In this document: positions 4,477 through 25,406 of the stretch, one piece after another
Layout: each line of letters starts with the position of its first letter
Numbering within the stretch: the stretch's first letter is position 1
IMG/VR virus record: IMGVR_UViG_3300032116_009995
Location: 1 to 35,188 of that record
Length of the DNA stretch: 35,188 nt
Source of the DNA: a virus
Strand: one strand, 5' to 3'
Program-made: the position numbers and the translations under genes
The notes under the pieces: model-generated
The model's database searches: none
The model's input: only the letters and a program-made list of their open reading frames with translations
Told to the model about the DNA's origin: nothing

Positions 4477-4986
4477 GTGTGGAAACCCGCTGACAACCTA
4501 AATTGGCAAGAAAACGCTACTTGTGCAAAACCCAGCAATAGGCACGCTTTAAACTGGTTTTTTTCTAAAGACTTCAATGAAAAGTATGCAGCCAAAAATA
4601 TGTGTTTTACCTGCCCTGTTAGATCCAAATGCCTTCAATGGGCCTTGGAGCATCGTCAGATATGGGGTATATGGGGCGGTAAAGATGAAGTTGATATTCG
4701 TAGAGCTCTTTCGGTATCTTATAGCGGAGAAGAAACAAGACGCCGTAGATTTCCTAATTGTCCTTATTGCACAGCTAGGCCATCTAAACTTGAAACATCT
4801 GTAGAGCAACTTGAAGGTGGAGGAAGATGGACAACAGCTAAAGTTGTTACATGTACAGAGTGTGGATTTGCATGGAGAAGTCGTACTAGCGCTAATGCTG
4901 TAGAAGCGTATAAACTAGAACGAGAAGAAAGAACAAAACAAAGAACAAAGAAAAAGAGGAAAAAGAATGATAAGACCGCAATTTGA
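4477..4986 (+). CDS. WhiB-like regulator fused to a zinc ribbon
   Basis: 169 residues. The N-terminal WhiB domain has C16, C43, C46 and C52 with GIWGG at 64-68, so the [4Fe-4S] ligand set is complete. Unlike the 91-residue WhiB encoded at 3460, it continues into a second metal-binding module: CPYC at 95-98 and CTEC at 126-129, spaced as a zinc ribbon, then a strongly basic tail (KQRTKKKRKKN). The GTG start at 4477 has no ribosome-binding site but sits six bases after a -10-like TAATAT, suggesting leaderless translation. The 3' end overlaps the AhpD-like gene by 20 bases. By family it should contact the host sigma factor; the ribbon and tail would add DNA or protein binding, which is inference. 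I do not recall this architecture as standard for phage WhiB proteins. Confidence 0.85.
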   Translation: MWKPADNLNWQENATCAKPSNRHALNWFFSKDFNEKYAAKNMCFTCPVRSKCLQWALEHRQIWGIWGGKDEVDIRRALSVSYSGEETRRRRFPNCPYCTARPSKLETSVEQLEGGGRWTTAKVVTCTECGFAWRSRTSANAVEAYKLEREERTKQRTKKKRKKNDKTAI

Positions 4987-5500
4987 ATCCTTACAAAATG
5001 CAAAAGGTATTGTAGATGTTTTTATGGAAAAACCTCAGAAATATGCGGCAGCTCTAACCTTAGCTCAAGAAGTATTAAGAGAAGCTTCTTATTTATCTCC
5101 TTTAGATAGAGAAATAATTGCAGCATACACATCTAGACTTAATAGATGCGAATATTGCTACGGATCTCATAGGGAGTTTGTAAAATCTTTAGGAGGATCT
5201 GAACTTGATTTAAATGCCGTAGATAATGCTGGTATGTCTACAGGTCATAGGTTAGATTCTATTTTTAATTATATAACAGTTTTAACAAAAAATCCAGAAT
5301 ATGTTAGTCAAGATATGAAGCTTAGAGTTATGGAAGCTGGGTTTACAGAAGAAGAACTAAAAGATGCTATAGCTGTATGCGCTGCTTTTAATTTTTACAA
5401 TAGAATTGTAGAAGGTCATGGCATTGACTCTAATTCAGAAACTTGGAAACCATCAGCTGAAATGATAAACAATCACGGATACGATAAAAGATATAAATAA
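4967..5500 (+). CDS. AhpD-like / carboxymuconolactone decarboxylase family protein
   Basis: 177 residues with the AhpD-type redox motif C61-E-Y-C64 followed by H68, and E49 twelve residues before C61. This spacing is the same as in Mycobacterium AhpD (Glu118, Cys130, Cys133, His137), so the proton-relay residues appear intact. AhpD proteins are all-helical thiol peroxidases and adaptors that regenerate peroxiredoxins; the wider CMD family also includes decarboxylases. ATG at 4967 has AGAGGA at 4955-4960 and lies inside the end of the WhiB-fusion gene, so translation is coupled. A phage-borne copy suggests protection from peroxide during infection. The physiological electron donor cannot be inferred. 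Confidence 0.82.
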   Translation: MIRPQFESLQNAKGIVDVFMEKPQKYAAALTLAQEVLREASYLSPLDREIIAAYTSRLNRCEYCYGSHREFVKSLGGSELDLNAVDNAGMSTGHRLDSIFNYITVLTKNPEYVSQDMKLRVMEAGFTEEELKDAIAVCAAFNFYNRIVEGHGIDSNSETWKPSAEMINNHGYDKRYK

Positions 5501-6204
5501 TGTTTATTAATAAACCTAAAAAAATTATTTTTAGTTCCGATCCAGTTGTAATTGACATACCTAAACCTGCAAAAAATTTTATACCTAAGTGGTATTCAAA
5601 AAGTGAAAGGTATCATGGAGGAGAGCCTCAGTATCACTCAAATCTTAATACAAACAAAAGTGTAAAAACTTGTGTTCCATTTTTAGACACTCTTACTACT
5701 GGTTATATGTTTGAACTTTCTATTGATGTTGTTATAAAACAAGAGTTAGATGGCCCTAATTTTGCATCTCCTCTACAACCAACTCCTATAGATGTAAGAA
5801 ATCCAGCACAGAATCCTTTAATACCTATACCTTTAGGATGTTCTCCACATCATTTTATTTGGAAAATTCCCCACTGCTTTAAAACTCCAAAAGGTTATAG
5901 TCTTTTAGTAACTCATCCTTTAAATAGATTTGATCTTCCATTTGTAACAATGAGCGGTATAGTAGATGCCGATAATGCAATAGGAAAAGGAAATTTTCCA
6001 TTCTTTTTAAAAGATGGATTTGAAGGAATAATACATGCTGGAACCCCGATTGCTCAAATTATTCCTTTTAAACGGGACGACTGGGAGTCAGTAAGAGACG
6101 ATTCTCTAAATTTAGAAGGAGAAAAAAGAAATTTTATGGCTGCTAGAACTATAAAAGACGGGTACTATAAGCTTACATCTTGGCACAAAAAAGAGTATAA
6201 CTAA
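5500..6204 (+). CDS. Conserved phage protein of unknown function (cyanophage-type)
   Basis: 234 residues. I recognise the general pattern from cyanophages and other marine phages: an N-terminal IDIPKPAKNFIPKWY segment, KTCVPFLDTLTTGY, a CSPHHFIWKIPH stretch, a GYSLLVTHPLNRFDLPF stretch, a GIVDAD turn and a C-terminal GTPIAQIIPFKRDDW. I know no demonstrated function. The many beta strands and the clustered His and Asp residues suggest a cupin-like or related beta fold, but no classical HXD...H iron-binding triad stands out. ATG overlaps the previous TAA as TAATG. It lies close to the halogenase gene on the opposite strand, a neighbourhood I have a vague memory of from other phages. Confidence 0.8.
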   Translation: MFINKPKKIIFSSDPVVIDIPKPAKNFIPKWYSKSERYHGGEPQYHSNLNTNKSVKTCVPFLDTLTTGYMFELSIDVVIKQELDGPNFASPLQPTPIDVRNPAQNPLIPIPLGCSPHHFIWKIPHCFKTPKGYSLLVTHPLNRFDLPFVTMSGIVDADNAIGKGNFPFFLKDGFEGIIHAGTPIAQIIPFKRDDWESVRDDSLNLEGEKRNFMAARTIKDGYYKLTSWHKKEYN

Positions 6205-6214
6205 GGAGATAATG

Positions 6215-6439
6215 ATGTTAAAACCAATGATTAGAGTGTTTGTAACAGGACACACTTATGCAGAAGTTAGTGAGAAAGCAAAACTAGCTATTGCTGAATT
6301 CTTTGATGAAAAAGAAGAAAACATTGAAAAAATTTTTACAAAGTACGATGTGGAAATGAACATCGAGCAAAATAATACACATGAAGGTGATCCTTGGTTT
6401 GCTCAGTGCTTTGTAAGAATGCCTTTTACAGCTTCTTAA
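6215..6439 (+). CDS. Small alpha/beta protein, paralogue of the 2.9-kb gene
   Basis: 74 residues from the second ATG at 6215; ATG at 6212 is equally readable, but AAGGAG at 6203-6208 is better spaced from 6215. The order is beta (IRVFVTG), helix (YAEVSEKAKLAIAEFFD), beta (YDVEMNI), beta (WFAQCFVRM). The GXXYXXXXEK...IAXFXD pattern matches the protein encoded at 2903-3109, suggesting gene duplication. The stop codon shares its TTAA with the stop of the convergent halogenase gene. Function unknown. Confidence 0.7.
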   Translation: MLKPMIRVFVTGHTYAEVSEKAKLAIAEFFDEKEENIEKIFTKYDVEMNIEQNNTHEGDPWFAQCFVRMPFTAS

Positions 6440-7857
6440 AAAAGAAACTGAGAAGAAAACTCTTTATAAGCTTCTTCAGCTTTATCATACATATCTAAAG
6501 CAATAAGGGTTTCTCTGGCTTGATCTGGGTTAATTAAGTTTAACCCAGCCAAAGACCAGTTCCACAGAGGTGCAGAAGCTCCTATATATTCTTCATAATT
6601 AAGACTTGAAGGTATTGTATGCTGACACAAAGATAAAATATCTTTTACAAATTCTGTAGAAGATTCTTCTGATTTCATATATTTCCAAAAATCGGTATCT
6701 GATCTTCCACCTTTATAATGCATAACTAAAAAATCACAATAGTCATCGTAAAGTTTTCCCATTTTTTTATTGTAAAATTTTCTATTTATTTCTGTGTTAG
6801 TTTTTTCAACCGTTTGAGTCAAATAATCGTAACAAAAAACCAACAATTGAAGAGTTGTTCCATGTATAGATGTAGCTTCTAAAGGCTCGCTAAAAGCTCC
6901 AGCAAGTCCCAAAGATAGACAATTGTTTTTCCACAGCTCTTCTGCTCTTCCAGAATCAAATTTTATAAGCTTTATTGGTTTTATCTCTCTGCCTAAAACT
7001 TTTTCTACTTCTTCTTGGGCTTTTGTTTCATCTGTATGTTCGCTACTAAAAACATATCCAGCCCCTCTTCTACTTTGTAAAGGGACATTCCACATCCAAC
7101 CGTGATCTAGAGCATGCGCTGTAGTGACAGGTTCATAATTAACACCCTCTTCATAATCTAAAAGAAAAGGAAGAGCTCTATCTACTGGCAAATGTTTTTT
7201 ATAGTGCTTCCATTTATAGCCAAGTTCTTTCATTAAAACTCTTCCAAAACCAGTGCAATCTATAAAAAAGTCTCCTTCTACTTCTGACCCGTCTTCTATC
7301 TCTACACTAGTAATGTTTCCAGATGAATTTATGTTTACTTTTTTAACTATAGAATCTATACAAGATACAAAATCTCCTATAACTAAAGACTTTAAATATT
7401 TTCCGACTTTGTTACCATCAAAATGCAAAGCTCCACCATAAGGAGGCATTCTCTCTATTTCATAAGATTGACCTATGTATGAAGCTAAATGTATTTTTTC
7501 TGATCCAAATTTAGATAAAACATAATTGAATATAATATCTGGAGACATAGTTTGTGTAGGACTGCCGTCTACAGGAGCAAAATACGAAGTTCCATCACCT
7601 TTCCAATTGACATGTCTAATACCCATTTTTCTAGTGCAGTCTGTATTAGCTGCAAAATCTTCTAGAGTAGTTCCTGGATCAAAATATTTACCCATGAGTA
7701 TGTCATAAAAAAGTCCAGTAGAAACTTCTCCAGCTCCAATAACACCTATTTTCGAGGATTCGATTACAATTATCTTGTGTTTATTAGGTTGAGATTTTGC
7801 AATAATATATGCAGCTAACCAGCCAGCTGTACCACCACCAACGATTACTATGTTCAT
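6436..7857 (-). CDS. Flavin-dependent tryptophan-halogenase-like protein
   Basis: 473 residues from the ATG at 7857. The open frame runs on to a TTG at 7878, but GGAAAGAAG lies just before 7857 and the ATG overlaps the upstream stop as ATGA, so 7857 is used. The FAD-binding GGGTAGW motif is at residues 7-13. K77, in RKMGIRHVNW, fits the position of the catalytic lysine of PrnA-type halogenases. The WMWNVP motif (about residue 260) matches the WXWXIP that marks this family and keeps NADPH-type monooxygenation out. GAFSEPLEATSIHG near residue 330 matches the glutamate-bearing flavin loop. By family it would chlorinate or brominate an aromatic substrate (often tryptophan, free or in peptides) with reduced FAD. 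No flavin reductase is visible nearby, so reduced flavin would come from the host. It is last in a long minus-strand block. Confidence 0.9.
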   Translation of the reverse strand: MNIVIVGGGTAGWLAAYIIAKSQPNKHKIIVIESSKIGVIGAGEVSTGLFYDILMGKYFDPGTTLEDFAANTDCTRKMGIRHVNWKGDGTSYFAPVDGSPTQTMSPDIIFNYVLSKFGSEKIHLASYIGQSYEIERMPPYGGALHFDGNKVGKYLKSLVIGDFVSCIDSIVKKVNINSSGNITSVEIEDGSEVEGDFFIDCTGFGRVLMKELGYKWKHYKKHLPVDRALPFLLDYEEGVNYEPVTTAHALDHGWMWNVPLQSRRGAGYVFSSEHTDETKAQEEVEKVLGREIKPIKLIKFDSGRAEELWKNNCLSLGLAGAFSEPLEATSIHGTTLQLLVFCYDYLTQTVEKTNTEINRKFYNKKMGKLYDDYCDFLVMHYKGGRSDTDFWKYMKSEESSTEFVKDILSLCQHTIPSSLNYEEYIGASAPLWNWSLAGLNLINPDQARETLIALDMYDKAEEAYKEFSSQFLF

Positions 7858-8927
7858 TGAGTGTTTTCTTCTTTCCAAGACTGTGCACAGAACATTAAAT
7901 TATCTTTTAATCTTTGGTTGTCTGGTTCTATATTAAGAGCATCTTGTGCATGCTGCAAAGCATCTTTATATTTTCCAAGGTTCCACGCTGCAATAGCAGC
8001 AAAATCATGAGGAGCAGCTCCCCAAGATTCAGCTTCGCAAAGATACTCAAGAGGTTTTTCTGTTATAGCTAAAGCTTGCTTTGCACATTCGTAAGAATTT
8101 TTCCAATCCTTACGCTCATAGTACATTTTTGTTAAATCTACCCAAGGCTCTCTTCTTCCAGGCGCTTGATCGATTGCCTTACGGAACCAGAACTCTGCTT
8201 CAGCTGGAACGCTCTTTCCAATAAAACGCATTGAAGCAGCTCTTTCTGGTGCCCAATGTGCTGTAGGAAGCTCTAAATGTCTCTTAAGTTCTCTAGCAGC
8301 TTCTTCATATTGACCGTAGAAATACAACTCTCTTCCATAATAAAAAGCATTTCGATCATTCCATGGATCTTCTTTTACAGATAAAGCAAGCAAAGGAAGG
8401 TACTGAGAACGAGATTTACTTGGGTCTGGATGATGATGAGTTTCTATTGCATCTGTCCACTCTTGAACTTCTTCCATTCCATAAACATATAAACACTCAT
8501 GAACTGGATGACGCCAACGATACCCTTTACGAGTGTGAATGTGGTCGTAACTAAATTCAAGTCCAGGTGTTCCGTCTTCATTAAAAGACCATATGTGTTT
8601 GTATCTAGGTCTTGTCACCCCGCGTTTCCATAGGTCTTCTAAAGGCTCTCTCCAGTTTGGAGTTATAACTTCATCCATATCAAGAGATATACACATATCA
8701 ATAAAATCTGGAAGTAAAGCTAGTGCAGCATTTCTAGCGTCATCAAAACGCCACGGGGCTACTTTTATATTGTGAACAACAATTCCAAGTTCTCTAGCAC
8801 GCTCTACAGTTCCGTCTGTTGACCCAGTATCAGCAATCATTAAGTAATCGGCATCTTTAGCAGCTTCAAACCATTTATCAACAAATTGACGCTCATTTAG
8901 CGCGATTGTGTATATAGCTGTTTTCAC
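7854..8927 (-). CDS. GT2 glycosyltransferase with TPR repeats
   Basis: 357 residues. The N-terminal GT-A domain has TIALNE at 7-12, the nucleotide-binding DTGSTDGT at 33-40, and the metal-binding D83-M-D85-E86. HPVHECLY and ETHHHPD follow, as in GT2 proteins that act on proteins or lipid carriers. From about residue 190 the chain is helical with TPR-like pairs (YEEAARELKRHLEL, AEFWFRKAIDQAP, YKDALQHAQDAL), a protein-binding scaffold. The GT2-TPR combination is common in phages and bacteria that glycosylate proteins. GTG at 8927 lies against the methyltransferase stop. It is in the same operon as the halogenase downstream and the methyltransferase upstream. The sugar and acceptor are unknown. 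Confidence 0.88.
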   Translation of the reverse strand: MKTAIYTIALNERQFVDKWFEAAKDADYLMIADTGSTDGTVERARELGIVVHNIKVAPWRFDDARNAALALLPDFIDMCISLDMDEVITPNWREPLEDLWKRGVTRPRYKHIWSFNEDGTPGLEFSYDHIHTRKGYRWRHPVHECLYVYGMEEVQEWTDAIETHHHPDPSKSRSQYLPLLALSVKEDPWNDRNAFYYGRELYFYGQYEEAARELKRHLELPTAHWAPERAASMRFIGKSVPAEAEFWFRKAIDQAPGRREPWVDLTKMYYERKDWKNSYECAKQALAITEKPLEYLCEAESWGAAPHDFAAIAAWNLGKYKDALQHAQDALNIEPDNQRLKDNLMFCAQSWKEENTQ

Positions 8928-9514
8928 TATACTACCTTTCTATACCAAGCTTGATATTCTTGAAAAATAAGTCTAAGTCTATCTCTATAGATACTTGAAA
9001 AAGAATCTATCGCCATTTTAGGTTCATTTTGAGGCCCAAGCTGTGCTGACCATTCATAGTCATCAAAAGCTATGATTCCACCAACATTCAAACATTCATA
9101 AGAATTTACGGCATCTTTTATAACACCATAAGCAGTATGATCCCCATCTACATATATAAAATCAAATTTTTCAGTGTTGTATTTAAAAAAATGGTCACTA
9201 GTTGCCTTATATTTTATTATTTTTCCACTGTCTCTAGCTTCCTGTGTTTTTCTGTCATACTCTTTTTCTACATCATTCCAGTCCCATTGTTTATGTAAAG
9301 GCTCATCAGAACCTTCCCATGTATCTATATCAATTAATTTTGAGTCTTTATGGGTTAATAAATTTTGATAAAGCCACATAGAAGCATCTCCTGTATATGC
9401 TCCTACCTGTAAAAAATTTACTGGTTTATCTTTATAATCTTTTAAAAGATGAGCAACAAAATTTTCCATGCCGTCAGATAAAAACCAATTTGGGTAATAT
9501 TTTGTCTCTTCCAT
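8927..9514 (-). CDS. Class I SAM-dependent methyltransferase
   Basis: 195 residues. VNFLQVGAYTGDASMWL (residues 32-48) is the glycine-rich SAM-binding loop, KLIDIDTWEG the second strand, and FIYVDGDHTAYGVIKDA (about 117-133) the motif typical of the Methyltransf_24 subgroup. GGIIAFDDYEW closes the core. These enzymes modify many small molecules and sugars, so the target cannot be read from the sequence. The ATG at 9514 follows an AAGAGAAAAG element. It is the first of three enzyme genes at the 3' end of the fibre gene block and is separated from the CBM-like protein gene by 25 bases, so it is probably co-transcribed with the tail genes and with the glycosyltransferase and halogenase. Confidence 0.85.
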   Translation of the reverse strand: MEETKYYPNWFLSDGMENFVAHLLKDYKDKPVNFLQVGAYTGDASMWLYQNLLTHKDSKLIDIDTWEGSDEPLHKQWDWNDVEKEYDRKTQEARDSGKIIKYKATSDHFFKYNTEKFDFIYVDGDHTAYGVIKDAVNSYECLNVGGIIAFDDYEWSAQLGPQNEPKMAIDSFSSIYRDRLRLIFQEYQAWYRKVV

Positions 9515-9539: not shown

Positions 9540-10166
9540 TTAGTACGGTGTTCCTCCGCTAAAACTACCATGAGATGCTCCAGTCCAAAAGCCGCCACTC
9601 GAGCCATCAAAATAACTTCCTACAGAGTTGGCTTTTTCTACCATAATAGAGTCTACATAGTAAATATCTCCAGAAGTAGTTGAAGAAGTAGATACTCGTA
9701 TAATAAAATAATCTGCAACTGAGTTTCTAGTAAATGTACCAGAAATTCTTGTCCAGTTCCCATTATCACTCAAAGAAGTTGTTCCTACATTGCCGCTAGA
9801 TACTGTCCCACTAGCAGCAAGACTTTCATATTGAAGATGTCTTAAAAAGTAATTTGAAGTAGTAGCTCCAGTTCCTAATTTTATATACGCACTTACTACA
9901 TATGTACCTTGACCTCCTAAGAAAGGTATTCTAGAAGTTGTTTGAAATCCACTTGCAGAAGTATTAGTAACTTGAAGCGCCGCTGATCCAGTATTTGATT
10001 CTGAAGTTACTCTTGTGAGAGTTGCGCCTCCAACTGACCCCCACCCAGAAGCGTCTACCTCAAAAGAAGGATTAGAAATATAATTTATTCTATAACCAAG
10101 AGCTATAGCTTCTGCAGGATTTTTAAGTGATCCAGCTCCGCTAAGTATTCCTACTGTACTTGGCAT
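9540..10166 (-). CDS. Phage tail protein with CBM4/9-like jelly-roll domain
   Basis: 208 residues. NYISNPSFEVDASGW (about residues 28-42) opens a beta-sandwich of the carbohydrate-binding-module 4/9 type, with SNTGSAALQVTN, YVVSAYIKLG and a terminal VDSIMVEKANSVGSYFDGSSGG. The last motif is one I associate with minor tail proteins of actinophages. The fold would bind host glycans. The ATG overlaps the upstream TAA as TAATG, so it is translationally coupled to the collagen-like gene before it. It has no collagen repeat of its own, unlike most of its neighbours, and may be an accessory receptor-binding or fibre-tip protein. Confidence 0.8.
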   Translation of the reverse strand: MPSTVGILSGAGSLKNPAEAIALGYRINYISNPSFEVDASGWGSVGGATLTRVTSESNTGSAALQVTNTSASGFQTTSRIPFLGGQGTYVVSAYIKLGTGATTSNYFLRHLQYESLAASGTVSSGNVGTTSLSDNGNWTRISGTFTRNSVADYFIIRVSTSSTTSGDIYYVDSIMVEKANSVGSYFDGSSGGFWTGASHGSFSGGTPY

Positions 10167-11434
10167 TAGCTAAGCGCCAAGTCTCCAGTAAGCAACCACT
10201 CGTTTGTCCCCAATTTAATTATAGAAGCGGTTGAGTACTGGGCTCTAAGTTTTGCGGTAGGAGTAGCTCTTACTGTTACTCCAGTATCTCCAACTACAGT
10301 AACTTGTCCAGATCCATATTGAACAATATCTACTCTTTGACCAACACTGTATGCTGCAGAAGAGTTTAGAGGAACAACAATATTCATTGCACTTGATTTT
10401 GTGCATTGAATAAGAGCACCAGCATCAGTTAGCAAAAGGGTGTATGTATCACCTTGAGCATTAATAGTTTGAGCTGTATCCCATTGGCCTGTTGCACCCG
10501 TAGCACCAACAGCACCAGTTGGACCTGTTACGGATGGACCAGTCGGCCCAGTCGGACCCGTAGGGCCAGTTACTGTAGAAGCAGCTCCTGTTGGCCCAAT
10601 ATTTCCTTGTGCACCTGTCGCTCCTGTAGGACCAGTTGGGCCTGTATCACCAGTAGCACCAGTAGGTCCACCAGAAGGACCAGTAGATCCTGTTGGACCA
10701 GTTGGTCCAGTCACTCCTGGGCCAGTTGGTCCAGTTACTCCTATGGGTCCTGTGGCACCAGAAAACTTTCCAGCATTAGCCCACTCTGAATTTAAATCGC
10801 TCCATATATATAAATCTTCACCTACTACATACGAGTCTCCTATATTACCTGTTGGATTATCTGCTTGTAGAAGGCCAAGGCTTGCATAAGTACCTAACAC
10901 AGTAACGCCAGATCCTTGCGGACCTGTTGGTCCACTAACTCCTTGAGGTCCTGTTGGTCCTAGTGGTCCAGTTGGTCCAGTAGGTGCAACAGTTGCTATT
11001 GTGTTAAAACCAGAACCTGTATAAAAACTTACAGCATTAGTTAAGCTATTTACCCACATATCTCCAACAGCTGGAAACCCTGGTGCTGTTGATGCATATG
11101 TAACATTTGCTCTACCAGTACTTTCAAATACTGCAGAAGCAGAAAAAGCTACATCCGAAGTGCTAGCTGCAACATAAATTTTATCTCCTACAGTTAGAGC
11201 AAATCTAAATGTCTCAAACGACTGTCCAACACTAACTTGAAGAGAATTTACAATATAAACTCTTAAAGATGGATCTCCACCAGAATCTACTGGTTCAATG
11301 TAAACAGTAGCGCCAGCAGTTACGCCTCCTTTATTAGTTATAATAACTGAAGCAACGCAAGTTACATCTGATGTAGCCATTAGTGACAATGCATTAGCTG
11401 CTGGAGTAGATACACCTAATCTTTTTGCTGGCAT
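10166..11434 (-). CDS. Collagen-like tail fibre protein with capping C-terminus
   Basis: 422 residues in three parts. The N-terminal beta domain (1-125) starts [15 protein letters not shown] and holds [17 protein letters not shown]; the same domain begins the next gene upstream. A Gly-X-Y tract rich in GPT and GAT triplets follows, broken by a short globular insert ([19 protein letters not shown] and a [14 protein letters not shown] segment). The C-terminal domain (about 320-422), [15 protein letters not shown] to [12 protein letters not shown], is closely matched by the end of the 626-residue protein encoded at 22817-24697. The triplets should form a triple helix, with the end domain as trimerisation or receptor-binding cap. 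A strong AAGGAG precedes the ATG. Confidence 0.85.
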
Positions 11435-11446
11435 TTATCTATCTCC

Positions 11447-12589
11447 TTAAATGCTATTCAATGATTTATGGGTAATGGTACCAACCATACCAGCGTGAAC
11501 ACTACATATATATCTGTAACCGCCAGAAGCTGCTGCTATAGGAACATTCCAATAAAGAGTTCCAGCAACTTTACCTTGAGCGCTAGCATCAGTTGTAACA
11601 GTTCCAGCAGAATCAACATGTATTAGTCCTGTAGAAATATCAGCAAAACCAGATCCAGTATCTGCTTGTAACTTAAAAGGATGTCCAGCATTAGCTAGAT
11701 TAAAAGCTATTGTAGCTCCGCCAAGAGCAAAAATAGTTGGGTTATCACCAGTGTAATGACTATTAAAGTTATATGCTGTAGTTCCATTATTGCTTACAGC
11801 TAATCTTGCAATAGCAGAATAGGCAACTTCATCGATAGTTATTGATGCTGCAGTTGCATCTGATGTTCCGCTAAAAGTAGAAGCCCCTGTTGCACCCGTC
11901 GCACCAGTCGCTCCCGTAGGGCCAGTTGGTCCTGTAGCACCTTCTGTTCCACCAATACCTGCTGGTCCCGTTGGACCAGTAGCGCCAGCAGCTCCAGTGG
12001 CTCCTGTAGGCCCACCTGACGGGCCAGTTGGACCTTGAGGACCAGTTGGGCCAGTAGCTCCAGTACCAGCTCCAGTTCCTACTTCTTCCCATGCGGTAGA
12101 TGTTTTTACTTCTAAAGCATCGGTTTCTGTGTTAAATCTTACATATCCAGCTTCTGCAGATGCTGGTCTTTGAGCAGTAGTTCCAGATTCTAAATAAATA
12201 GTATTGTTATCACCACGAATTACTTTATTAGTAAAAGTTTGAGCTATATTTTCTGGAAGAGCAGAATCTTCTTGAGCTATACCATTTACACTAAAAGAAG
12301 TTGTGTCAACACTTGATCTAACATAAAGAATGTCTCCAGAGTTAACAGCAAATCTAAAAGTTTCAAAAGAGCTGTTTAGAGGTATAGCAAGATTAAATGC
12401 AATATACGCATATTGAGTAGATATAACAGCATTAGCAGGTACTACCCAAATACTAACTTTACATGCAGGAGTTGCTGAAATTGCTTTACTAGCAGCTACA
12501 ACAGAAACTAAGTAAGGACTACTAAATGTTAATAAAGCTGTATCAGTATTAGCATCAGGATTTGATAAACCAAGTCTTTGTATCGGCAT
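11447..12589 (-). CDS. Collagen-like tail fibre with C-terminal cupredoxin-like domain
   Basis: 380 residues. The N-terminal domain (1-130) starts [14 protein letters not shown] and shares [18 protein letters not shown] with the neighbouring fibre protein. A GPTGP-type tract spans about 175-240. The last 138 residues look like a cupredoxin: [16 protein letters not shown] supplies a likely His ligand, and [15 protein letters not shown] supplies Cys, His and Met in C-X2-H-X2-M spacing, the spacing of amicyanin. The two ends of the protein are thus an anchor and a putative copper-binding domain. I recall related sequences in virion proteins of marine phages, but the copper has not been shown here. 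AGGAGG lies directly before the ATG. Confidence 0.8.
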
Positions 12590-12598
12590 CTTGGCCTC

Positions 12599-15500
12599 CT
12601 ATGCCTGAGCTTCAGACCATGACATCTTAGCTGATGTTAGCGTTGTGTTACCAGTTAATCTAGATACTGCAATAGTTAAAATATCTGGACCATCTGGATA
12701 GATGCTGTCACCGCCAAGAATAGAGTTTGATAACTCGAACAAAGAGCTAACATCTACAGTTGTTGTATCTTCAGCTCCACTAGCACCACCAGCTGCTTTA
12801 AAGTTATAAACCTGAACACCTCCAGAAACAGTATCGGATGCCGTATGTTCAACAATCTGAGTTAGTGAAGGAGCATCTACAGAAGTAAAGTTTAGGTTAT
12901 TCAAACGAGGGTTTAAAAGAAGTTTAGCGTCAACTAACTGAGTTGTTGATATGCCAATTTCTTTCAAACGAAGCTGCATTCGGTTAATAACATCTCTATC
13001 TCCAAGTTTTCCTGTCAAACCGCTAGAAACAGAAGGAGAAAGACGAAGAGAGATAAGAGGCTGATAGTTAGGTCCAGAACTATTGTTAAGAGATCCGTCT
13101 GGATACAAGAAATACTGATATTGAGTATTTCCTTGAGAAGTAAAATTAAGAACTTCAGCTACTGCAAGACCATTTTCTGTTACAGTTGTTTGAGCTGTTC
13201 CAGCTTTAGTAACAGTAAATGTAGTTGCATTAGTTACAGTTACTGTATATGTACCATTTACATCAAGAAGATTAGCATTAGTTATGCCATAAATTCCAAC
13301 ATACATACCATTAGAAAGTCCGTGGTTTGTGTTAGTTACAACAGTAACTGTTGTACCAGCTCTGGCTACAGTTCCTCCTACAGATATAGGTGAAGCAAAT
13401 GGTGTCAAATGAATCAAGTTAGATGAATTAACAAAAGCTTTATATTTAGTGCTATTTGTTAAATAAGACAAAGTATTTGTGCCTACTACCTGAGTTGCTG
13501 GATTAAGTGTATTAGTTCCCGGGAATCCGTTAGGAGCAATTGATTGGAACTGTAAAACATCTCCTGTTCGAAAACCGTGTGTTTGTACAGTAATTAAATC
13601 GTTTGCAAGATTTATTCCAGTAGAAGAAAACAACTTTGTGGTAGTTCCTGAAATATTTAATGTCTGGCTACCTTGAGTAAAGAGGTAAGCATTGTCGTCA
13701 TCAAAACGGCCATCCATCATAACCGAAGTACCCCAGTGGAATAGGTATGGGATATAGGTTGGATTTAGATAAGTAACAACCTCATAGCGAGCTGGCAAGT
13801 TACCAGAGCGGAAGTATGATTCATACAAGTTATTGTTGTGAACAAACTCGTGAACATACTGAACCTGACCATCGGTTGTTTTAAAACCAAAGCGAATCTT
13901 ACCCGCACCGTACCAAGAGTAATCGATATAAGCCATCTGAATCTTGCTTAGATCTAGGTTGTAACCAGTAGGTCCAGATCCATCGCATGGATCCAAAGAA
14001 AAATTCTCTTGAGGAATTCTTGTATCAACTGTCTTAGTCATGATAATACCTGATTTAGCAGGAGTAAAGGAGTGAGTAGATGTTGTTCCAACTGAAGAAA
14101 TATCCACAACTCCTACAGAATCTGGGGAAGCTTTTAATCTAAAAGAGTTATTATTAATTAGATCTATGTAGTAAGTTCTTCCGTTGATAAGACCGCCAAT
14201 AGGTTCTCCGTCAATAGAGTTATAAACTACTGGCAAGAGATTAGAAAAACCATGTCCAACAAGCTGGAATGTGTCTGTAGATGTTCTAACAACTCCAGTA
14301 GTTCCATTGCCTGGATCAAACTCTTTTTCTGTTCCAGAAGCACCTTTATATTCAGGACGAACAGACATACGAGTATTGCTTGTAATCTGAACTACTCTAT
14401 ATGATTGACCACGCATAACAATATAGTCCCCGACTGTAAGCTGGGCTTGGAAACTTGTATTAGTTCCAAAAATCAGTTCTGATCCTTGAAGAGCTGAAGC
14501 TGTACCAGCTAATTGTTGAGTAGAAGATCTACGAACTGCATAAAGTTTTTGTCCATCATACTCAAAGAACATGCCGTTCTGGAAGTCAAACATACCTGTA
14601 CGAACGGCTCCATTTGCCCATGCAGTTACAAAGAACTGAGGGAAACCATATGATCTATTTTCTACAATTGGACTGTTTGATACCATTCTAAATGTAGTTA
14701 AATCCACTACTGTTACTTGGAAATTTCCATTGTATACAGTGGAAGTGTTTCCATTAGAATCTTTTGCCTCACTTACTGTAATAGTAAGACCTGAAATCAA
14801 ACCGTGAGGTCTGCGGGTCTTACATTCAATTGTTGTAGAGCTAAATTGAGTCATACTTTCAAGGTCAATTGAAGGCTTGAAGTTGATACCACAAGAGGTT
14901 TGTAGACCCTTACCTGACTGGTAACGGAAATATTTACGAGTCTGACGAACAATCTGACCCCAAGAAGTTCCAGCACCTACAGACATTTCAACACCACCAT
15001 CAAACGGACGATGTAGAGAGTAACCCTCTGGTCTTACATATACGAATGTTGGGTATGAGTAAGAGACAGCTGAGTATGCGTTTGCATATGGACGATCTAC
15101 AGTAATCTGAGTGTCAGATCCAATAGCTGTAATTCTACGAATAATAGGTCCGATTGGAGTAGTCTTTGTTAAAGTAAATCCAGATCCAGTACCTTGAGTT
15201 GTGAAATCCAAAGCTCCTGTGTTAGCTGTAGCATCAGCAGCAGAGTTGTGAAGTGTTATTTCACTTGAAGATACAGCACGAGTAAAGTAGTAGTATCCAT
15301 CAACTAAAGGACTTGGAGATACTCCACCGTTTGCTGCGTACACAATTGTGTCACCTGTAGCAAATCCATGAGCAGCTTTAGTGATACGGTTTGTAGTTGT
15401 ATTTACATCTGCTGCAGCAAAAGTTATAGCTGTAGTAGTATTTGATGGGAAAAGACGGAATCTGTCTCCTACTTTAAGAATCTTAGAAAATGAAGTACCA

Positions 15501-18406
15501 GCTCCATTTACAAGAACAGAACCAGAAGATACAGTTACAGTACCACCGCCAGTAACATTTCCGTTAATCTGACTTGTAACAAAAGTATGGTTTACACCAG
15601 TTCCAAAGTCAGAAACAGTTAATGTAATACCAGCTGCAGCATTATCTGCAGAAGTAGCTAAACGAAGATAATCTCTGTTAACAGAAACTACATAATAATC
15701 TGTGTCATCTGTTAGACCACTGATATCTGTACCAGCTTCTCCATTTGAGTATCTAACTTCTGTTCCAGTTATAAACCCGTGAGAAGGAATTTTAAATGTA
15801 CTTAGATTTAAATCTATAGAAGATCTAGGGTTAAATGTTTTAGTAATTACTGGAACATTGCCTTTAGCTTCTACAGTAAAAGTATTAGCACTTGGAGTTG
15901 AAACGATGGTGTAAATTCCATCTGGAGTTTTGCTTAAGGATTGAAGTGAATGCACACCAACACCAGCTGGTGACTCCAGCAGATCAACAGCTGTTCCAGC
16001 TGAAGCGTTTTCTGGTGTTGTAGCAAGCTTAATGTTATCTCCGTCAATGAATATGACATAATAAGGAGTCGCAGTTGTTAAACCATTTACAACTGTTTGA
16101 CCTCGAGAGTCATAGTTTACAAGCTCTCCTTGAAGGAATCCATGTCCTGGAACTGTAATTATGTTGTTAGTAAAGTCTAAAGATGTAATAAGAAGAGACT
16201 GAGTACCAGTACCTACACCAGTAATATTTGCAATATTTGTTAAAGCTTGGTTTGTGGCAAGCTTAACAATACTGTTATCAACCTTGATGATGTAATAAGT
16301 ACCGTTGTTTGTTAAACCAGGGATAGTTGTTCCGCCACCATTTGAATATCTAACGGCTTGACCAGAAACTAATCCATGATTAGGAATGTACAAAGTATCT
16401 TCAAGTGTATTAATTGTTACGAAGATAAAGCTGTGTGCAGTTCCTGTTCCAGCAGCTGTAAAATTAATAGAAGTTGGGGAATTTAAAGATGTTTTTAGTT
16501 TAATTCTGTTAGCGTCAATAACTTCAGAAATATAATAAGTAGCTTGATCCTGTAGAGGTGCAATTGCTACGCCTCCACCAGTATCATATTGTACTGGCTG
16601 ATCCACTTGAAAACCGTGGTTGTTAATACTTAAAGTATCAGTTGCAGTATTGACAACAACTTTTCTTATTTGATCAGATGTGGCTGTTTGTCTAGAAGAA
16701 GGGATTGTTAAGTTAATAGTAGTAAATGTAGGAGATGGAGTTGTACTCAATCTATATGTAAATGTGTTTACTGTATTAATATAATAAATAATTCCATTAG
16801 ATAAGCCAGTAGGAGCAGTGCCATTAAAATTAAGAGTTACAGCTTCTCCATTAACCAAACCATGAACTGATGAACTATGGATAACATCGTTTTCTAGATC
16901 CATACTAATAGGTACAAAAGCATGTGTAGACGATCCAGCAGGAGCTATTGCAATAGCATTTGTATTATTTTGAGCATCTACTGCTGTAGGATGAACGCTG
17001 TTACCAGTTGTAAATGAAGAAATCAATGACAATACAACTTGACCTTCTCCATCTCTATAAGATGAAAGATTTGTTATTGCAGCTCCATTAAATGTAGCAA
17101 CACCATCAAAAAGACCTGTTGATGTAGCAACATTTGTTGCACTAGAAATAATGAAAGAACCGCCGCCACCACCAGATGCATTAGCTATAGTTGTACGAGC
17201 TCCTGGCCCTCCAGAGTAGCCACCACCACCACCAGATTGTCCAGCGTTGTTACCGTCAGATTGTCCACCGCCACCAAATCCACCATAACCGCCAGCACGA
17301 GTGTTAGTACTCATGGTTAATCCATCAAGAAATGACCCGCCACCAAAATCTCCAACAGTAGAGTTTTCACCTCTACCATTAAAACCTCCACCACCACCAG
17401 AACGACCACCAGCAGCACGACCACCGAAGCTCAAAGCTGTTCCTTGAATACCACCTGTGGAAGAAGTTCCACCTATCTGACTTAATACACCGTTTCTTCC
17501 CGCAGTTGTATTTGCATCTGCAGAACCTCCACCAGCAACAAACAAAGGCTCGTTACCAGTTTTACGAACTACAAATGTTCCACCACCAGAACCACTCCAT
17601 GTACCTGCAGAAACTCCCTTTTGACCGCAAGCAATTGTGATAATTTCACCTTTAGTTAAGGAAACTCTTCCTCTTACACGAGCACCTAAACCTGGAGCTG
17701 CTCCTCCAGATCCATCAAAACCAGATGCTCCATAAACATCAAATTCATAAATACCAGAAACTGGAACTGTCCAGTCTTGATAACCTTGAAATGCTCCTTG
17801 TGAAATGTAGGTTTCATCCCAGTTTCCATTTGCAGATGTATCGTAAGCAGATCTCATTTGAGCTTGAGTAGGGCCAACTCGACCAGTCTGGCCGCAAGTA
17901 GTAAATGTATGAGTATTAGAAGCTAGCGTATATAAAGCTTGAGAACCAGCAAAAGAAGATACAGAAACATTTCGTAAAAAGTATGTATTGCCGCTAGTCA
18001 ATCCAGTTAATGCAGTACCGTTTGTATAGTATTTAACTGCTTGATTTGAAGGCGTAGAAGCATCAATATTAAGCTTATTATCATAAACTCTTGGTGTATT
18101 AAAAGTAATATCTCCAGCAACAGCAGCAGTAATATTAATATCTGATCCACCCTGAGTGGTGCTAAATTTTAATTGCTGGGTGTTTTCTCTTTTAACAAAA
18201 ACAAGGGTGTCATCTGTAATACCAGTAAGTGCTCCAGTACCAGTTGAATATATAAAACCAGTACCATTTGTAAGAGCTGTAGGTATATTTTCAGCTGTTA
18301 CACCTGCAGTACCTTTATAGTAAATAAAGTCACTGTCAACATGTACATTTGTTTTACGAAATGTATGAGCTCCAGTAGAACCTACTGCCGTAACATTAAT
18401 AGGCAT
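12599..18406 (-). CDS. Giant tail protein: glycine-rich domain and HGF-type repeats
   Basis: 1935 residues, the largest gene in the window. The N-terminus (1-190) carries two TNGTALTG-type beta units. Residues about 190-465 form a glycine-rich domain opened by DWTVPVSGIYEFDVYGASG and packed with GGGG runs. Residues about 500-1075 are a tandem array of 60-90-residue repeats (HGF/HGL, then VXYXXGGG, then LXXXXXYYV, then LAT). About 1120-1560 contain a conserved core with SYPTFVYVRPEGYSLHRP and DPCDGSGPTGYNLDLSKIQ that I associate with cyanophage virion proteins. More repeats follow, and the C-terminus (about 1760-1935) has VINRMQLRLKEIGI and ISLRLSPSV. No signal peptide, no enzyme motif. It is likely a tail or baseplate fibre. 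AGAGGAT precedes the ATG. Confidence 0.85.
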   Translation of the reverse strand: MPINVTAVGSTGAHTFRKTNVHVDSDFIYYKGTAGVTAENIPTALTNGTGFIYSTGTGALTGITDDTLVFVKRENTQQLKFSTTQGGSDINITAAVAGDITFNTPRVYDNKLNIDASTPSNQAVKYYTNGTALTGLTSGNTYFLRNVSVSSFAGSQALYTLASNTHTFTTCGQTGRVGPTQAQMRSAYDTSANGNWDETYISQGAFQGYQDWTVPVSGIYEFDVYGASGFDGSGGAAPGLGARVRGRVSLTKGEIITIACGQKGVSAGTWSGSGGGTFVVRKTGNEPLFVAGGGSADANTTAGRNGVLSQIGGTSSTGGIQGTALSFGGRAAGGRSGGGGGFNGRGENSTVGDFGGGSFLDGLTMSTNTRAGGYGGFGGGGQSDGNNAGQSGGGGGYSGGPGARTTIANASGGGGGSFIISSATNVATSTGLFDGVATFNGAAITNLSSYRDGEGQVVLSLISSFTTGNSVHPTAVDAQNNTNAIAIAPAGSSTHAFVPISMDLENDVIHSSSVHGLVNGEAVTLNFNGTAPTGLSNGIIYYINTVNTFTYRLSTTPSPTFTTINLTIPSSRQTATSDQIRKVVVNTATDTLSINNHGFQVDQPVQYDTGGGVAIAPLQDQATYYISEVIDANRIKLKTSLNSPTSINFTAAGTGTAHSFIFVTINTLEDTLYIPNHGLVSGQAVRYSNGGGTTIPGLTNNGTYYIIKVDNSIVKLATNQALTNIANITGVGTGTQSLLITSLDFTNNIITVPGHGFLQGELVNYDSRGQTVVNGLTTATPYYVIFIDGDNIKLATTPENASAGTAVDLLESPAGVGVHSLQSLSKTPDGIYTIVSTPSANTFTVEAKGNVPVITKTFNPRSSIDLNLSTFKIPSHGFITGTEVRYSNGEAGTDISGLTDDTDYYVVSVNRDYLRLATSADNAAAGITLTVSDFGTGVNHTFVTSQINGNVTGGGTVTVSSGSVLVNGAGTSFSKILKVGDRFRLFPSNTTTAITFAAADVNTTTNRITKAAHGFATGDTIVYAANGGVSPSPLVDGYYYFTRAVSSSEITLHNSAADATANTGALDFTTQGTGSGFTLTKTTPIGPIIRRITAIGSDTQITVDRPYANAYSAVSYSYPTFVYVRPEGYSLHRPFDGGVEMSVGAGTSWGQIVRQTRKYFRYQSGKGLQTSCGINFKPSIDLESMTQFSSTTIECKTRRPHGLISGLTITVSEAKDSNGNTSTVYNGNFQVTVVDLTTFRMVSNSPIVENRSYGFPQFFVTAWANGAVRTGMFDFQNGMFFEYDGQKLYAVRRSSTQQLAGTASALQGSELIFGTNTSFQAQLTVGDYIVMRGQSYRVVQITSNTRMSVRPEYKGASGTEKEFDPGNGTTGVVRTSTDTFQLVGHGFSNLLPVVYNSIDGEPIGGLINGRTYYIDLINNNSFRLKASPDSVGVVDISSVGTTSTHSFTPAKSGIIMTKTVDTRIPQENFSLDPCDGSGPTGYNLDLSKIQMAYIDYSWYGAGKIRFGFKTTDGQVQYVHEFVHNNNLYESYFRSGNLPARYEVVTYLNPTYIPYLFHWGTSVMMDGRFDDDNAYLFTQGSQTLNISGTTTKLFSSTGINLANDLITVQTHGFRTGDVLQFQSIAPNGFPGTNTLNPATQVVGTNTLSYLTNSTKYKAFVNSSNLIHLTPFASPISVGGTVARAGTTVTVVTNTNHGLSNGMYVGIYGITNANLLDVNGTYTVTVTNATTFTVTKAGTAQTTVTENGLAVAEVLNFTSQGNTQYQYFLYPDGSLNNSSGPNYQPLISLRLSPSVSSGLTGKLGDRDVINRMQLRLKEIGISTTQLVDAKLLLNPRLNNLNFTSVDAPSLTQIVEHTASDTVSGGVQVYNFKAAGGASGAEDTTTVDVSSLFELSNSILGGDSIYPDGPDILTIAVSRLTGNTTLTSAKMSWSEAQA
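15220..16905 (-). repeat. Tandem array of HG[FL]-type protein repeats
   Basis: Within the 1935-residue tail protein at least six consecutive copies of a module are visible: a DTLXXXNHGF-like strand, then GXXVXYXXGG, then a loop with LTXXTXYYVXXV, then IKLAT and a spacer. Copies differ in sequence at DNA and protein level, so this is ancient internal duplication. Two or three more copies lie nearer the C-terminus and about three in the neighbouring 842-residue protein. Confidence 0.75.
17012..17839 (-). other. Glycine-rich (ALK/LTK-type) domain coding region
   Basis: This part of the 1935-residue gene codes for VPVSGIYEFDVYGASG, GLGARVRGRVSLTKGEIITI, FVVRKTG, PLFVAGGG and then dense GGGGG runs with interspersed Ser and Asn. 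The order (beta-sandwich core feeding strings of Gly) matches glycine-rich domains of receptor kinases and some phage tail tips, where Gly chains form polyglycine helices. Confidence 0.65.
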
Positions 18407-21028: not shown

Positions 21029-21679
21029 TTAAATACCTAACCACCATGATGTGGACATAGCTAATGATCCTTGTGGACCTGTCGCACCAGTAGTACCCTG
21101 AGTACCTCCAGCAGCTTCTAAAAATACTCCATTATAAAAAACATAAGTTTTTGCAGTATTAGTATTAAACCAAGCATCTCCATTTACAGAAGTTTCAATT
21201 GCTGGCTGAGTTGGTCCAGCAGTGAATTTACCTACAGGACCTGTAGGACCTGTAGGACCTGGAATTTCTGATTGAGCACCTGTTGGTCCTGTAGGACCTG
21301 TTTGTCCACGAGGACCAGTTGGGCCTTGCGGACCTGTTACTTGTGAATCTGCTCCAGTGGGGCCTGTAAAACCACGCAAACCTTGTTCACCAGTTGCTCC
21401 TTGCGGACCTGTTGGCCCCTGAGTGCCTGTTGGACCCGTTGGTCCTTGAGGACCAGCTACATCTGATATAGGTCCAGTAGGACCTTGAATACCTTGTGGT
21501 CCTGTAGCACCTACGGAACCAGTAGCACCTGTAGGACCTTGAATACCTTGTGGTCCTTGTGGACCTGTTGGAGCTACACGCTTAGCTTCCCAAGCAATTC
21601 CAGTCCAGACCCAGGTTTGATTATTAAATGTGACTTCTTCACCAACTACTGTTGGCGTAGGAAAATCTATTGCTGCCAC
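21029..21679 (-). CDS. Collagen-like fibre protein (MAAIDFP anchor)
   Basis: 216 residues. The first 35, starting [14 protein letters not shown] with [11 protein letters not shown], form a small WW-like beta hairpin module shared with the proteins encoded at 22817-24697 and 24711-25406. Residues about 36-150 are collagen-like Gly-X-Y with many GPQ, GPT and GAT triplets. A short insert, [18 protein letters not shown], follows, and the C-terminus is brief (TSWWLGI). With almost no globular head it may be a minor or decoration fibre. GTG at 21679 follows AAGGA. Confidence 0.8.
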
Positions 21680-22816: not shown

Positions 22817-24697
22817 TTACACCGTTAGATTTCCGCTTAGCAACCACTCATTAGCTCCAAGTTTAATTAGAGAGCCAACAGCATATCTAGCTTTGGTTGT
22901 AAATCTTGATCCTTCGCTTCTTATTACAGCTGAGCCAGTAGCACGAACAGTTACCTGTCCAACGCCAAGTTGGGTGAATAAAATTTGTGTTCCAATTGGA
23001 AATGTATACCCATCTGTACCATCTTGTGCAACATCTAAAAATAACGCAGAAGAGCTGTTCATTTTTACAATTGTTGCTGCATCTTCGGCAATCAAAACAT
23101 GTGAAACAAGTTTAGTAGGGCCAGTGACTTCAAAATTAGCTGGTCCTGTTGGACCTGTAATTCCTGGGCCTGTTGGACCAGTAGCTCCTTGAGCTCCTGT
23201 AGCACCTGTAGGACCTGGCACGGTTGAAGTTGGTCCAGTAGCTCCAGTAGGACCTGTCACAGATGGACCTGTAGGACCAGTTGGGCCAACAATTGGACCA
23301 GCATTTACCCAGCTAGAACCGTTCCAAACATAAAGATTTCCATTTGCAGAAACAATGTAAGCATCGTTTACAGTATTACCGACTGATGGAAGATTTCCTA
23401 CAGTAGCAACTTGACCTTTAACTGTAATTGATGTTCCTTGTGGACCTGTCGCACCAGTAGGGCCAACTTCTCCAGAACCAAGAACCAAGTTCCAAGAAGC
23501 GTATGTGTTTCCATCTCCATTTATTTTGTCAACCAATATAGTGATAGATGTTCCAACAATTACAGTAATAATTCCTTCCATAAAATTAGAAGGAAATGAA
23601 CTAGCTGCTAGTCTTGCTCTAGTTCCAACAGTAAAAGCATCCACCTTATTTACAGTAAAGTTTTTTGTAACTCCACTTTCAATAGTTAAATTACTAGTAG
23701 AAGTGACTCCTATATAACTAGGACCCTGCGGACCTGTTGGTCCTGTAGGTCCAGATCCTGTAGCACCAGTTGCGCCAGTAGGACCTGTTACTGTAGAAGC
23801 TGCACCCTGCGGACCTGTCGCTCCCGTAGGGCCAGTTGGTCCTGGAATTGTAGAAGCTGATCCTGTAGCTCCTGTAGCACCAGTTGCACCACGAAGACCT
23901 ACTTCACCTTGTGCACCCGTAGCACCAGTTGCACCAGTTGCGCCCGTCGGTCCAGTAGGACCTCCAGAAGGCCCTGTCGGACCCACAGGTCCAGTTGCAC
24001 CTGTTACTGATGGACCAGTGGCTCCCGTAGCGCCATTTGGACCAGTTGCACCAGCAAAACCTCTAGGCCCTGTCGGACCTGTTGGACCAGCATTGCCTTG
24101 TGCACCTGTTGCACCCGCTGGACCAGTTTCTCCTATAGGGCCTGTAGGACCTGCAGTTCCTTGAGAACCTGTTGGACCACGCTGTCCTTCTGGTCCTGTT
24201 GCACCAACAGCACCAGTAGGACCTGCAGGGCCTGTTGGACCAGCTACATATAAACCTTGTGGACCAGTTGGACCAGTATTTCCTTGTGGACCAGTAGATC
24301 CTGTTGGACCTGTTGGACCTGTAATAGTAGATGCAGCACCTTCAGGACCAGTAGCACCAGTTGCGCCAGTAGGACCAGCTAAACCTATATTTGAAGAAGC
24401 AGATTCTACCCAGTAACTATCGTAATAAACATAAATTTGACCAGTTTCAGAGTTAAACCAAGCATCTCCAACATCTGGTGAACTTGGTGGAGTAACACTT
24501 GAAATAGAAAATGATCCTGTTGGACCTGTTGGACCAGTTACATTTGAAGCTGCACCTGCTGCACCAGTTGGACCTGTAGGTCCTACTACTGAAGAAATTA
24601 CAAGATCCCAAGCGGTTCCTGTCCATCTCCAAGTTTGAGATCCAGAAGTAAATAATTCATTTACGCTAGGTGAGTTTGGAAAATCAATAGCTGCCAT
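22817..24697 (-). CDS. Long collagen-like fibre protein with capping C-terminus
   Basis: 626 residues. The N-terminal anchor (1-35) starts [14 protein letters not shown] with [12 protein letters not shown]. Two collagen tracts (about 38-330 and about 415-520) are dominated by GPT, GAT and GPQ triplets. The first is interrupted by [22 protein letters not shown], and a beta-rich globular segment with [20 protein letters not shown] and TVAT-type strands separates the two. The C-terminal 105 residues end in [15 protein letters not shown] and match the cap of the 422-residue fibre encoded at 10166-11434, suggesting a trimerisation or adhesion cap. AGGAGGATATG precedes the ATG, and the preceding stop lies within the same element. 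Confidence 0.85.
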
Positions 24698-24710: not shown

Positions 24711-25406
24711 CTAGCTCAAAAACGATTCATATTGAATGTGAATTAGAATTTTGTCATTAGCGCTAAATAAAAATGGTTGGCTTTCAGTTACAGCTACACC
24801 TTCATCATATGTTGCCGACTGAGAGTGCATAAAAAGTTCTATTCTATTTCCATTGTTGCTATTAAAAATTGCTGTTCCAAAATAGTTTGTACCTGGACCT
24901 TCGTCACGCATGACTACTTGACCTACTGGTTGAAAGTTTTCAAATACTCCAGCGGTAGGTAAACTTACGGAGTATGTTCCAGATCCACGACTGAATCCAG
25001 CAGTTCCAGCAACAATACGAATTTCTCCAATAATAGTTGCGCCAATGTTTACATACCTACCAGTGATGCTTCCATTTCCTATAACTGGATTTGTTGTGCT
25101 TCCATATAAAACTGGTGTATATGTAGTCCAAGGAGTGATTGCAAAAGCACCTGTCGGTCCAGTAGCCCCAGCTGGGCCGGGTACCGTTGATGCCGCACCA
25201 GTAGGACCTGTAGCACCAGCTGGACCTTCAGGACCAGTTGGGCCTATTGCAGTTGAGTTTTCACCTGCTGGCCCAGTTGGTCCAGTTGGTCCAGCTGCAC
25301 TAGTACGAACTAAACGCCAAGCAGTTCCGTTCCAACGATATGTTTGAATTCCATTTGTGTAAGTCTCATTGAGCGTAGGGTTACTTGGAAAATCAATTGC
25401 TGCCAT
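24711..25406 (-). CDS. Short collagen-like fibre with beta-rich head
   Basis: 231 residues. It opens with the MAAIDFPSNPTLNE anchor and TYRWNGTAWRL, has a short Gly-X-Y tract (about 40-80) and then a head domain beginning WTTYTPVLYGSTTNPVIGNG, with ITGRYVNIGATIIGEIRIV and GSGTYSVSLPTAG. The head is matched in outline by the end of the 1573-residue fibre: [25 protein letters not shown] and [10 protein letters not shown]. Strong AGGAGG precedes the ATG. It is likely a trimeric fibre whose head is exchangeable with that of its neighbour. Confidence 0.83.
   Translation of the reverse strand: MAAIDFPSNPTLNETYTNGIQTYRWNGTAWRLVRTSAAGPTGPTGPAGENSTAIGPTGPEGPAGATGPTGAASTVPGPAGATGPTGAFAITPWTTYTPVLYGSTTNPVIGNGSITGRYVNIGATIIGEIRIVAGTAGFSRGSGTYSVSLPTAGVFENFQPVGQVVMRDEGPGTNYFGTAIFNSNNGNRIELFMHSQSATYDEGVAVTESQPFLFSANDKILIHIQYESFLS

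What the first reader, a model, noticed from the sequence alone, without database searches (positions are those of the whole stretch)
6436..9514. Halogenase, GT2-TPR and methyltransferase cassette at the end of the fibre block
Three enzymes that modify molecules sit in one tight run (ATGA and adjoining stop/start codons) at the 3' end of a 21-kb fibre gene block, in the same direction and with only 25 bases between the CBM-like gene and the methyltransferase. The halogenase keeps the FAD loop, K77 and the WXWX(I/V)P motif. One reading is that they build a halogenated, methylated sugar or residue placed on the Thr-rich GPT/GAT collagen (BclA of Bacillus spores carries sugars on Thr of GPT repeats). 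Another is that they change a host surface or host metabolite. The collagen decoration reading is inference only.
Basis: partly seen in the sequence, partly recalled or inferred. Interest (0 to 1): 0.8.

Follow-up and report, generated by a model that had tools for sequence, protein, structure and literature searches.

The report
Phage fibre-collagen glycosylation cassette with halogenase
A freshwater bacterial virus carries, right behind the genes for its collagen-like fibres, a sugar-attaching enzyme whose relatives in bacteria sit next to collagen genes, plus a methyl-adding and a halogen-adding enzyme, which suggests that the virus chemically decorates its own fibres.

Summary
In detail: methyltransferase (MT), GT2-TPR glycosyltransferase (GT) and flavin halogenase form one run behind a 20.6-kb collagen fibre block. 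The linkage is real. Among 80 IMG/VR loci found with the GT alone, the MT (50 copies) and halogenase (21 copies) always lie within three genes of the GT, on its strand. Outside phages, GT relatives in GTDB genomes (mostly Clostridia) have a collagen gene as immediate upstream neighbour in 51/78 loci, against 4/647 for other genes. Collagens beside the GT carry Thr at about half of Y positions; Clostridia collagens from genomes without it, about 0.16. The GT model matches peptide glycosyltransferases SunS/ThuS best. C. difficile SgtA, same size and layout, is a published collagen Thr O-GlcNAc transferase. So the GT most likely glycosylates Thr of the GPT/GAT fibres, and the MT probably methylates that sugar. 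The halogenase keeps its catalytic residues but cannot chiefly target the GXY repeats (2 Trp/Tyr in 1110 residues); it is optional, recruited at least twice, and elsewhere keeps company with DUF6065 and 2OG oxygenases, so its target stays open.

The parts
6436..7857 (-). Flavin-dependent halogenase, 473 aa, ATG start overlapping the GT stop (ATGA)
   Evidence: PF04820 E 3.8e-85; phrog_2928 E 6e-101; K77, W254xW256xVP259, EPLEATSI kept; best solved relatives PyrH-type Trp halogenases
7854..8927 (-). GT2-TPR glycosyltransferase, 357 aa, GTG start
   Evidence: phrog_13126 E 1e-115; TPR and weak GT2 hits; model pLDDT 95.7; Foldseek best SunS/ThuS; D83xD85E86 invariant in alignment
8927..9514 (-). 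Class I SAM methyltransferase, 195 aa (Methyltransf_24)
   Evidence: PF13578 E 9.8e-15; found beside the GT in most loci, all 50 copies within 3 genes and same strand
9540..10166 (-). CBM_4_9-like fibre or tail protein, 208 aa
   Evidence: PF02018 E 4e-9; tail PHROGs; conserved between collagen and MT in many loci
10166..11434 (-). Collagen-like fibre, 27 GXY triplets, Thr at Y 0.63
   Evidence: PF01391; tail fibre PHROGs; composition
11447..12589 (-). Collagen-like fibre, 19 triplets, Thr at Y 0.68
12599..18406 (-). 1935-aa fibre protein with Gly-rich ALK_LTK-like region
   Evidence: PF12810 and PF16190
18419..20947 (-). 842-aa fibre protein, fibrinogen/COLFI-like weak hits
21029..21679 (-). 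Collagen-like fibre, 35 triplets
   Evidence: PF01391 E 6e-14
22817..24697 (-). Collagen-like fibre, 67 triplets, Thr at Y 0.55
   Evidence: PF01391 E 4e-24
24711..25406 (-). Short collagen-like protein
25420..30141 (-). Long collagen fibre, 216 triplets, Thr at Y 0.63
   Evidence: PF01391 E 5e-74, 13 stretches
5500..6204 (+). DUF6065 protein, convergent with the cassette; recurs beside halogenases and near the GT in other phages
   Evidence: phrog_7084 E 2e-39; contexts; model and fold search

Best explanation
The run is a virion fibre-modification cassette. Step 1 (well supported, not shown in this phage): the GT2-TPR enzyme grips the unfolded fibre chain with its TPR arm and, using a nucleotide sugar and a DxD-bound metal, O-glycosylates Thr at the Y position of the GPT/GAT repeats. 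Step 2 (inferred): the methyltransferase O-methylates that sugar or a fibre residue. Step 3 (inferred, weaker): the halogenase, with reduced FAD from a host flavin reductase, halide and O2, chlorinates or brominates an aromatic group on a non-collagenous fibre part or on another component made at that site. The decorated fibres would change adsorption, stability or protease resistance. Step 1 I put at about 0.85, step 2 at 0.6, step 3 acting on the virion at 0.4.
For: The GT alone was used to find loci, so neighbours are unbiased. In GTDB loci (mostly Clostridia) collagen is the immediate upstream same-strand gene in 51/78 (43/66 and 12/27 after 90% and 70% dereplication) against 4/647. In 245 genomes of the class, 9/10 GT carriers have collagen against 69/235 others, p 2e-4. 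Thr at Y: 0.54 median beside the GT against 0.16 in collagens of GT-less Clostridia, 0.60 in phage GT loci, 0.14 in halogenase-phage loci without GT. Fold: SunS/ThuS E 1e-14, then OGT TPR domains. Published SgtA (358 aa, GT-A plus TPR, beside bclA3) adds beta-O-GlcNAc to Thr of collagen peptides (PMC7157674). Halogenase (21) and MT (50) always within three genes of the GT, same strand; halogenases of two lineages entered this slot.
Against: No chemistry is shown. In phages the collagen proximity loses significance at 70% dereplication (10/19 against 85/262, p 0.06). Several distant phage GT relatives (e.g. L057, L076-L079) lack an adjacent collagen, and about a third of bacterial ones too. The halogenase is absent from all bacterial GT loci, missing in most phage ones, and also pairs with DUF6065 away from fibres. 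GXY repeats lack aromatics. Adjacency can reflect a hot spot for gene insertion.
Confidence: 0.72

Rival explanations
1. Split function: GT and MT decorate the fibre, but the halogenase is an independent metabolic or host-directed gene that merely lands in the same insertion site at the end of the late operon.
For: Halogenase is optional (9 presence/absence changes on the GT tree); related halogenases sit in arrays with 2OG oxygenases and DUF6065 in T4-like phages; the phage of L017 has a second halogenase in operon with DUF6065 and no collagen nearby; collagen repeats lack aromatics.
Against: In the 80 GT loci all 21 halogenases lie within 3 genes of the GT and on its strand, none farther off; two halogenase lineages were recruited to this place; several T4-like arrays also lie beside tail-fibre genes.
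Confidence: 0.4
2. Auxiliary metabolism or surface exclusion: the three enzymes alter a host surface glycan or a host metabolite during infection.
For: Phage glycosyltransferases do change host O-antigen (established knowledge); published authors read the DSL-LC01 halogenase as an auxiliary metabolic gene (PMC10611076); VirX1, a cyanophage halogenase, iodinates diverse substrates in vitro (title of Gkotsi 2019 as cited in PMC10452541).
Against: GT fold matches soluble peptide GTs with a helical-repeat arm rather than membrane-linked lipid GTs; GT relatives follow collagen genes in Clostridia; no sugar-nucleotide or pathway genes in the window.
Confidence: 0.12
3. Shared insertion hot spot only: enzymes with unrelated targets accumulate between fibre genes and WhiB because recombination is frequent there.
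For: Gene content at this site varies a lot (about 60 arrangements in 84 loci).
Against: The GT-collagen link recurs in Clostridia chromosomes, which do not share the site; Thr enrichment tracks the GT; MT, GT and halogenase stay on the fibre strand.
Confidence: 0.1

Closest known systems
SgtA / BclA3 of Clostridioides difficile (PMC7157674)
   Same: GT-A plus C-terminal TPR, 358 against 357 aa; gene next to a GPT-repeat collagen gene; published beta-O-GlcNAc on collagen Thr, metal dependent
   Different: Spore coat, not virion; no methyltransferase or halogenase described with it; gene lies upstream of the collagen; sequence orthology not tested here
SunS / ThuS glycocin S-glycosyltransferases
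   Same: Best solved structures for the GT model: GT2 domain with helical-repeat arm acting on polypeptide
   Different: Cys S-glycosylation of bacteriocin peptides; about 14% identity
Mimivirus L230 collagen lysyl hydroxylase/glucosyltransferase
   Same: A virus glycosylating its own collagen (PMC9614988)
   Different: Hydroxylysine, not Thr; a different bifunctional enzyme; eukaryotic virus
Mycobacteriophage Che8 virion glycosylation (Freeman 2023, cited in PMC11256854)
   Same: Phage-encoded GTs that decorate virion proteins of an actinobacterial phage
   Different: Capsid and tail tube, not collagen fibres; no halogenase
VirX1 halogenase of cyanophage Syn10 and other Kyanoviridae PrnA-like proteins
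   Same: Same PF04820 family; catalytic Lys and EPLE/EPLQ motif
   Different: About 30% identity; other phages, no collagen-GT neighbour
Actinomycetia phage DSL-LC01 (OQ999401)
   Same: Same architecture: collagen fibres, halogenase, GT (59% identity), WhiB
   Different: Halogenase only 25% identical, WxWxIP and E327 altered (GWVSKIP, EPLD); no MT in the run; authors did not link it to collagen

Membership tests
Flavin-dependent halogenase (PF04820) | FAD GxGxxG loop, catalytic Lys, WxWxIP, Glu after EPL | tested here: met
   GGGTAGW, K77, WMWNVP, EPLEATSI; E 3.8e-85
Free-tryptophan halogenase (PrnA/RebH/PyrH) | C-terminal segment holding the amino acid part of free Trp | tested here: inconclusive
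   PyrH YYHGFETYSW aligns with EYIGASAPLW, so the clamp looks lost; roles of those residues are from memory
Polypeptide GT2-TPR glycosyltransferase | GT-A domain with DxD metal site plus TPR arm; fold of peptide GTs | tested here: met
   D83xD85E86 invariant; helical repeats in model; SunS/ThuS top
Collagen Thr O-GlcNAc transferase (SgtA type) | Genetic linkage to GPT/GAT collagen | tested here: met
   51/78 bacterial loci against 4/647; phage 48/80 within six genes
Collagen Thr O-GlcNAc transferase (SgtA type) | Sequence orthology with SgtA | not tested
   SgtA sequence was not at hand; only published length and domain layout compared
Collagen Thr O-GlcNAc transferase (SgtA type) | Transfer of GlcNAc to Thr of collagen peptide | not testable with these tools
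   needs enzyme assay
Class I SAM methyltransferase, PF13578 | Profile match over the SAM fold | tested here: met
   E 9.8e-15, full profile 1-105
Virion protein glycosylation system | Glycan found on virion proteins | not testable with these tools
   needs mass spectrometry

The most novel reading that the evidence does not exclude
Tailed phages carry a fibre-maturation pathway that both glycosylates collagen threonines and halogenates virion fibre proteins: a flavin halogenase acting on a viral structural protein, with the halogenase/2OG-oxygenase/DUF6065 arrays next to tail fibres of T4-like phages being a second form of the same thing.
Probability: 0.25. Interest if true: 0.92.

Novelty: new variant of a known kind. 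Interest (0 to 1): 0.72.

Why it matters
It would give a large, widespread GT2-TPR family (phages and Clostridia) a concrete job, collagen Thr glycosylation; show that phages decorate their own collagen fibres, as giant viruses do; and put the long-unexplained phage tryptophan halogenases, usually listed as auxiliary metabolic genes, next to a testable virion target.

Tried and rejected
Halogenation of the collagen repeats themselves: rejected, only 1 Trp and 1 Tyr in 1110 GXY residues. An aromatic residue of the CBM-like protein specific to halogenase carriers: the conserved Trp and Tyr columns are mostly present with and without halogenase; a few weaker columns differ but are confounded by relatedness. 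Flagellin as target in the bacterial GT loci without collagen: neighbours scanned were tRNA synthetase, KduI, response regulator, chemotaxis receptor and hydrogenase, so no support. A phage flavin reductase partner: none in nine related records, so the host probably supplies FADH2. DUF6065 as a 2OG hydroxylase: the model matches dUTPase/dCTP deaminase weakly instead. Promoter and terminator scan: not above shuffles.

Full report
What is there. The window is one IMG/VR virus record of 35,188 bases. Two WhiB genes and the nearest relatives mark a phage of freshwater actinobacteria: DSL-LC01 from Dishui Lake has the same layout, and WhiB is held to be typical of actinophages (PMC10202952). The minus strand carries a fibre block at 30141-9540 with six collagen-like genes, then MT, GT and halogenase without real gaps. 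The ATGA overlap, the TAGTG overlap and the 25-base gap are seen directly. The halogenase starts at the ATG at 7857.

Is the run more than chance. I searched IMG/VR with the GT alignment only, so that neighbours are not selected. In 80 loci the commonest order is collagen, CBM, MT, GT, then halogenase or nothing, ending against a convergent WhiB. All 21 halogenases and all 50 MT copies lie within three genes of the GT and on its strand; none lies among the 860 gene slots farther off in the same loci. The halogenases at this place come from two lineages (a HAL and a HALb clade, three changes on the halogenase tree), and presence changes nine times on the GT tree. So the halogenase is an optional, repeatedly recruited partner, not a fixed one.

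What the GT does. In GTDB genomes, mostly Clostridia, the same GT family follows a collagen gene immediately in 51 of 78 loci, against 4 of 647 for other genes in the same stretches; after dereplication at 70% identity it is 12/27 against 4/246. The median gap is 60 bases. Over 245 genomes of the class drawn without regard to the GT, 9 of 10 GT carriers have collagen, against 69 of 235 of the rest (one of the ten is the seed genome, without it p 5e-4). Thr sits at the Y position in 0.54 (median) of triplets beside the GT and 0.16 in collagens of genomes without it (that control was picked by best profile score, which may favour GPQ and GPP repeats, and some GT-less genomes do have GPT collagens). 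The window's collagens have 0.46-0.68. The GT model (pLDDT 95.7) matches SunS and ThuS first, then TPR domains of O-GlcNAc transferase. C. difficile SgtA has the same length and layout, lies beside bclA3, and adds GlcNAc to collagen Thr in vitro (PMC7157674). I therefore assign Thr O-glycosylation of the fibre to the GT with about 0.85 confidence; the sugar is unknown.

What the other two do. The MT is a Methyltransf_24 protein. Methylated sugars on GPT threonines are known from BclA (own knowledge), so sugar O-methylation fits, but is inference. The halogenase keeps every catalytic element: K77 in 141/141 homologues, EPLEATSI in 16/16 cassette members of its own type; the I/V of WxWx(I/V)P is T in 12 of those 16. 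The DSL-LC01 copy has lost the second Trp and has Asp for Glu. The segment that holds free Trp in PyrH is not conserved. Its target cannot be mainly the GXY repeats, which have 2 Trp/Tyr in 1110 residues; Trp and Tyr occur in the globular parts of the fibres. No flavin reductase is encoded in nine related records, some of them fragments.

A second context. Relatives of the halogenase in T4-like phages stand in arrays of two to six copies with 2OG-Fe(II) oxygenases and DUF6065 proteins, in several cases beside tail fibre or baseplate-fibre connector genes. Pelagibacter phage HTVC008M has a dioxygenase directly before its halogenase inside the structural module. The phage of L017 has, besides its cassette, a DUF6065-halogenase pair far from collagen. 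So a second function, or a common one not tied to collagen, must be kept open.

Verdict. The collagen-decoration reading is supported for the GT, plausible for the MT, and open for the halogenase. Collagen Thr glycosylation, viral collagen glycosylation and phage virion glycosylation each have precedents; their combination in a phage fibre cassette with a halogenase appears not to be described in the papers I could search, which is a limited library.

Noticed in passing
L090-L152 (e.g. L109:6195-20921, L111:9374-21069): Arrays of two to six halogenase paralogues interleaved with 2OG-Fe(II) oxygenases, DUF6445 and DUF6065 proteins in T4-like phages, several beside tail-fibre genes; function unknown.
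   Followed up: partly
window 5500-6204; L286:6848-7552: DUF6065 protein: AlphaFold model (pLDDT 89.8) matches dUTPase/dCTP deaminase weakly; motif GTPIAQ resembles dUTPase; recurs beside halogenases, sometimes in one operon, and near the GT.
   Followed up: partly
window 4967-5500: Carboxymuconolactone decarboxylase (AhpD-like) gene joined to the DUF6065 gene; same pair in L001.
   Followed up: no
window 21898-22815: 305-aa beta-propeller-like protein (DUF6242) inside the fibre block; DSL-LC01 has a counterpart at the same place annotated as photosystem II assembly factor.
   Followed up: no
L156, L159, L166, L181, L212, L224: Some Clostridia and relatives carry two tandem copies of the GT2-TPR gene, sometimes without collagen next to them.
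   Followed up: partly
L004, L005, L006 (MT838491, MT837902, MT835646): Records labelled Bacteriophage sp. from faeces whose genes look like bacterial chromosome (aminotransferase-like and transporter genes; TonB receptors with halogenases).
   Followed up: no
L003:20222-21793 (DSL-LC01): Halogenase with the second Trp of WxWxIP replaced by Ser and Glu of EPLE by Asp; possibly altered or lost activity.
   Followed up: partly
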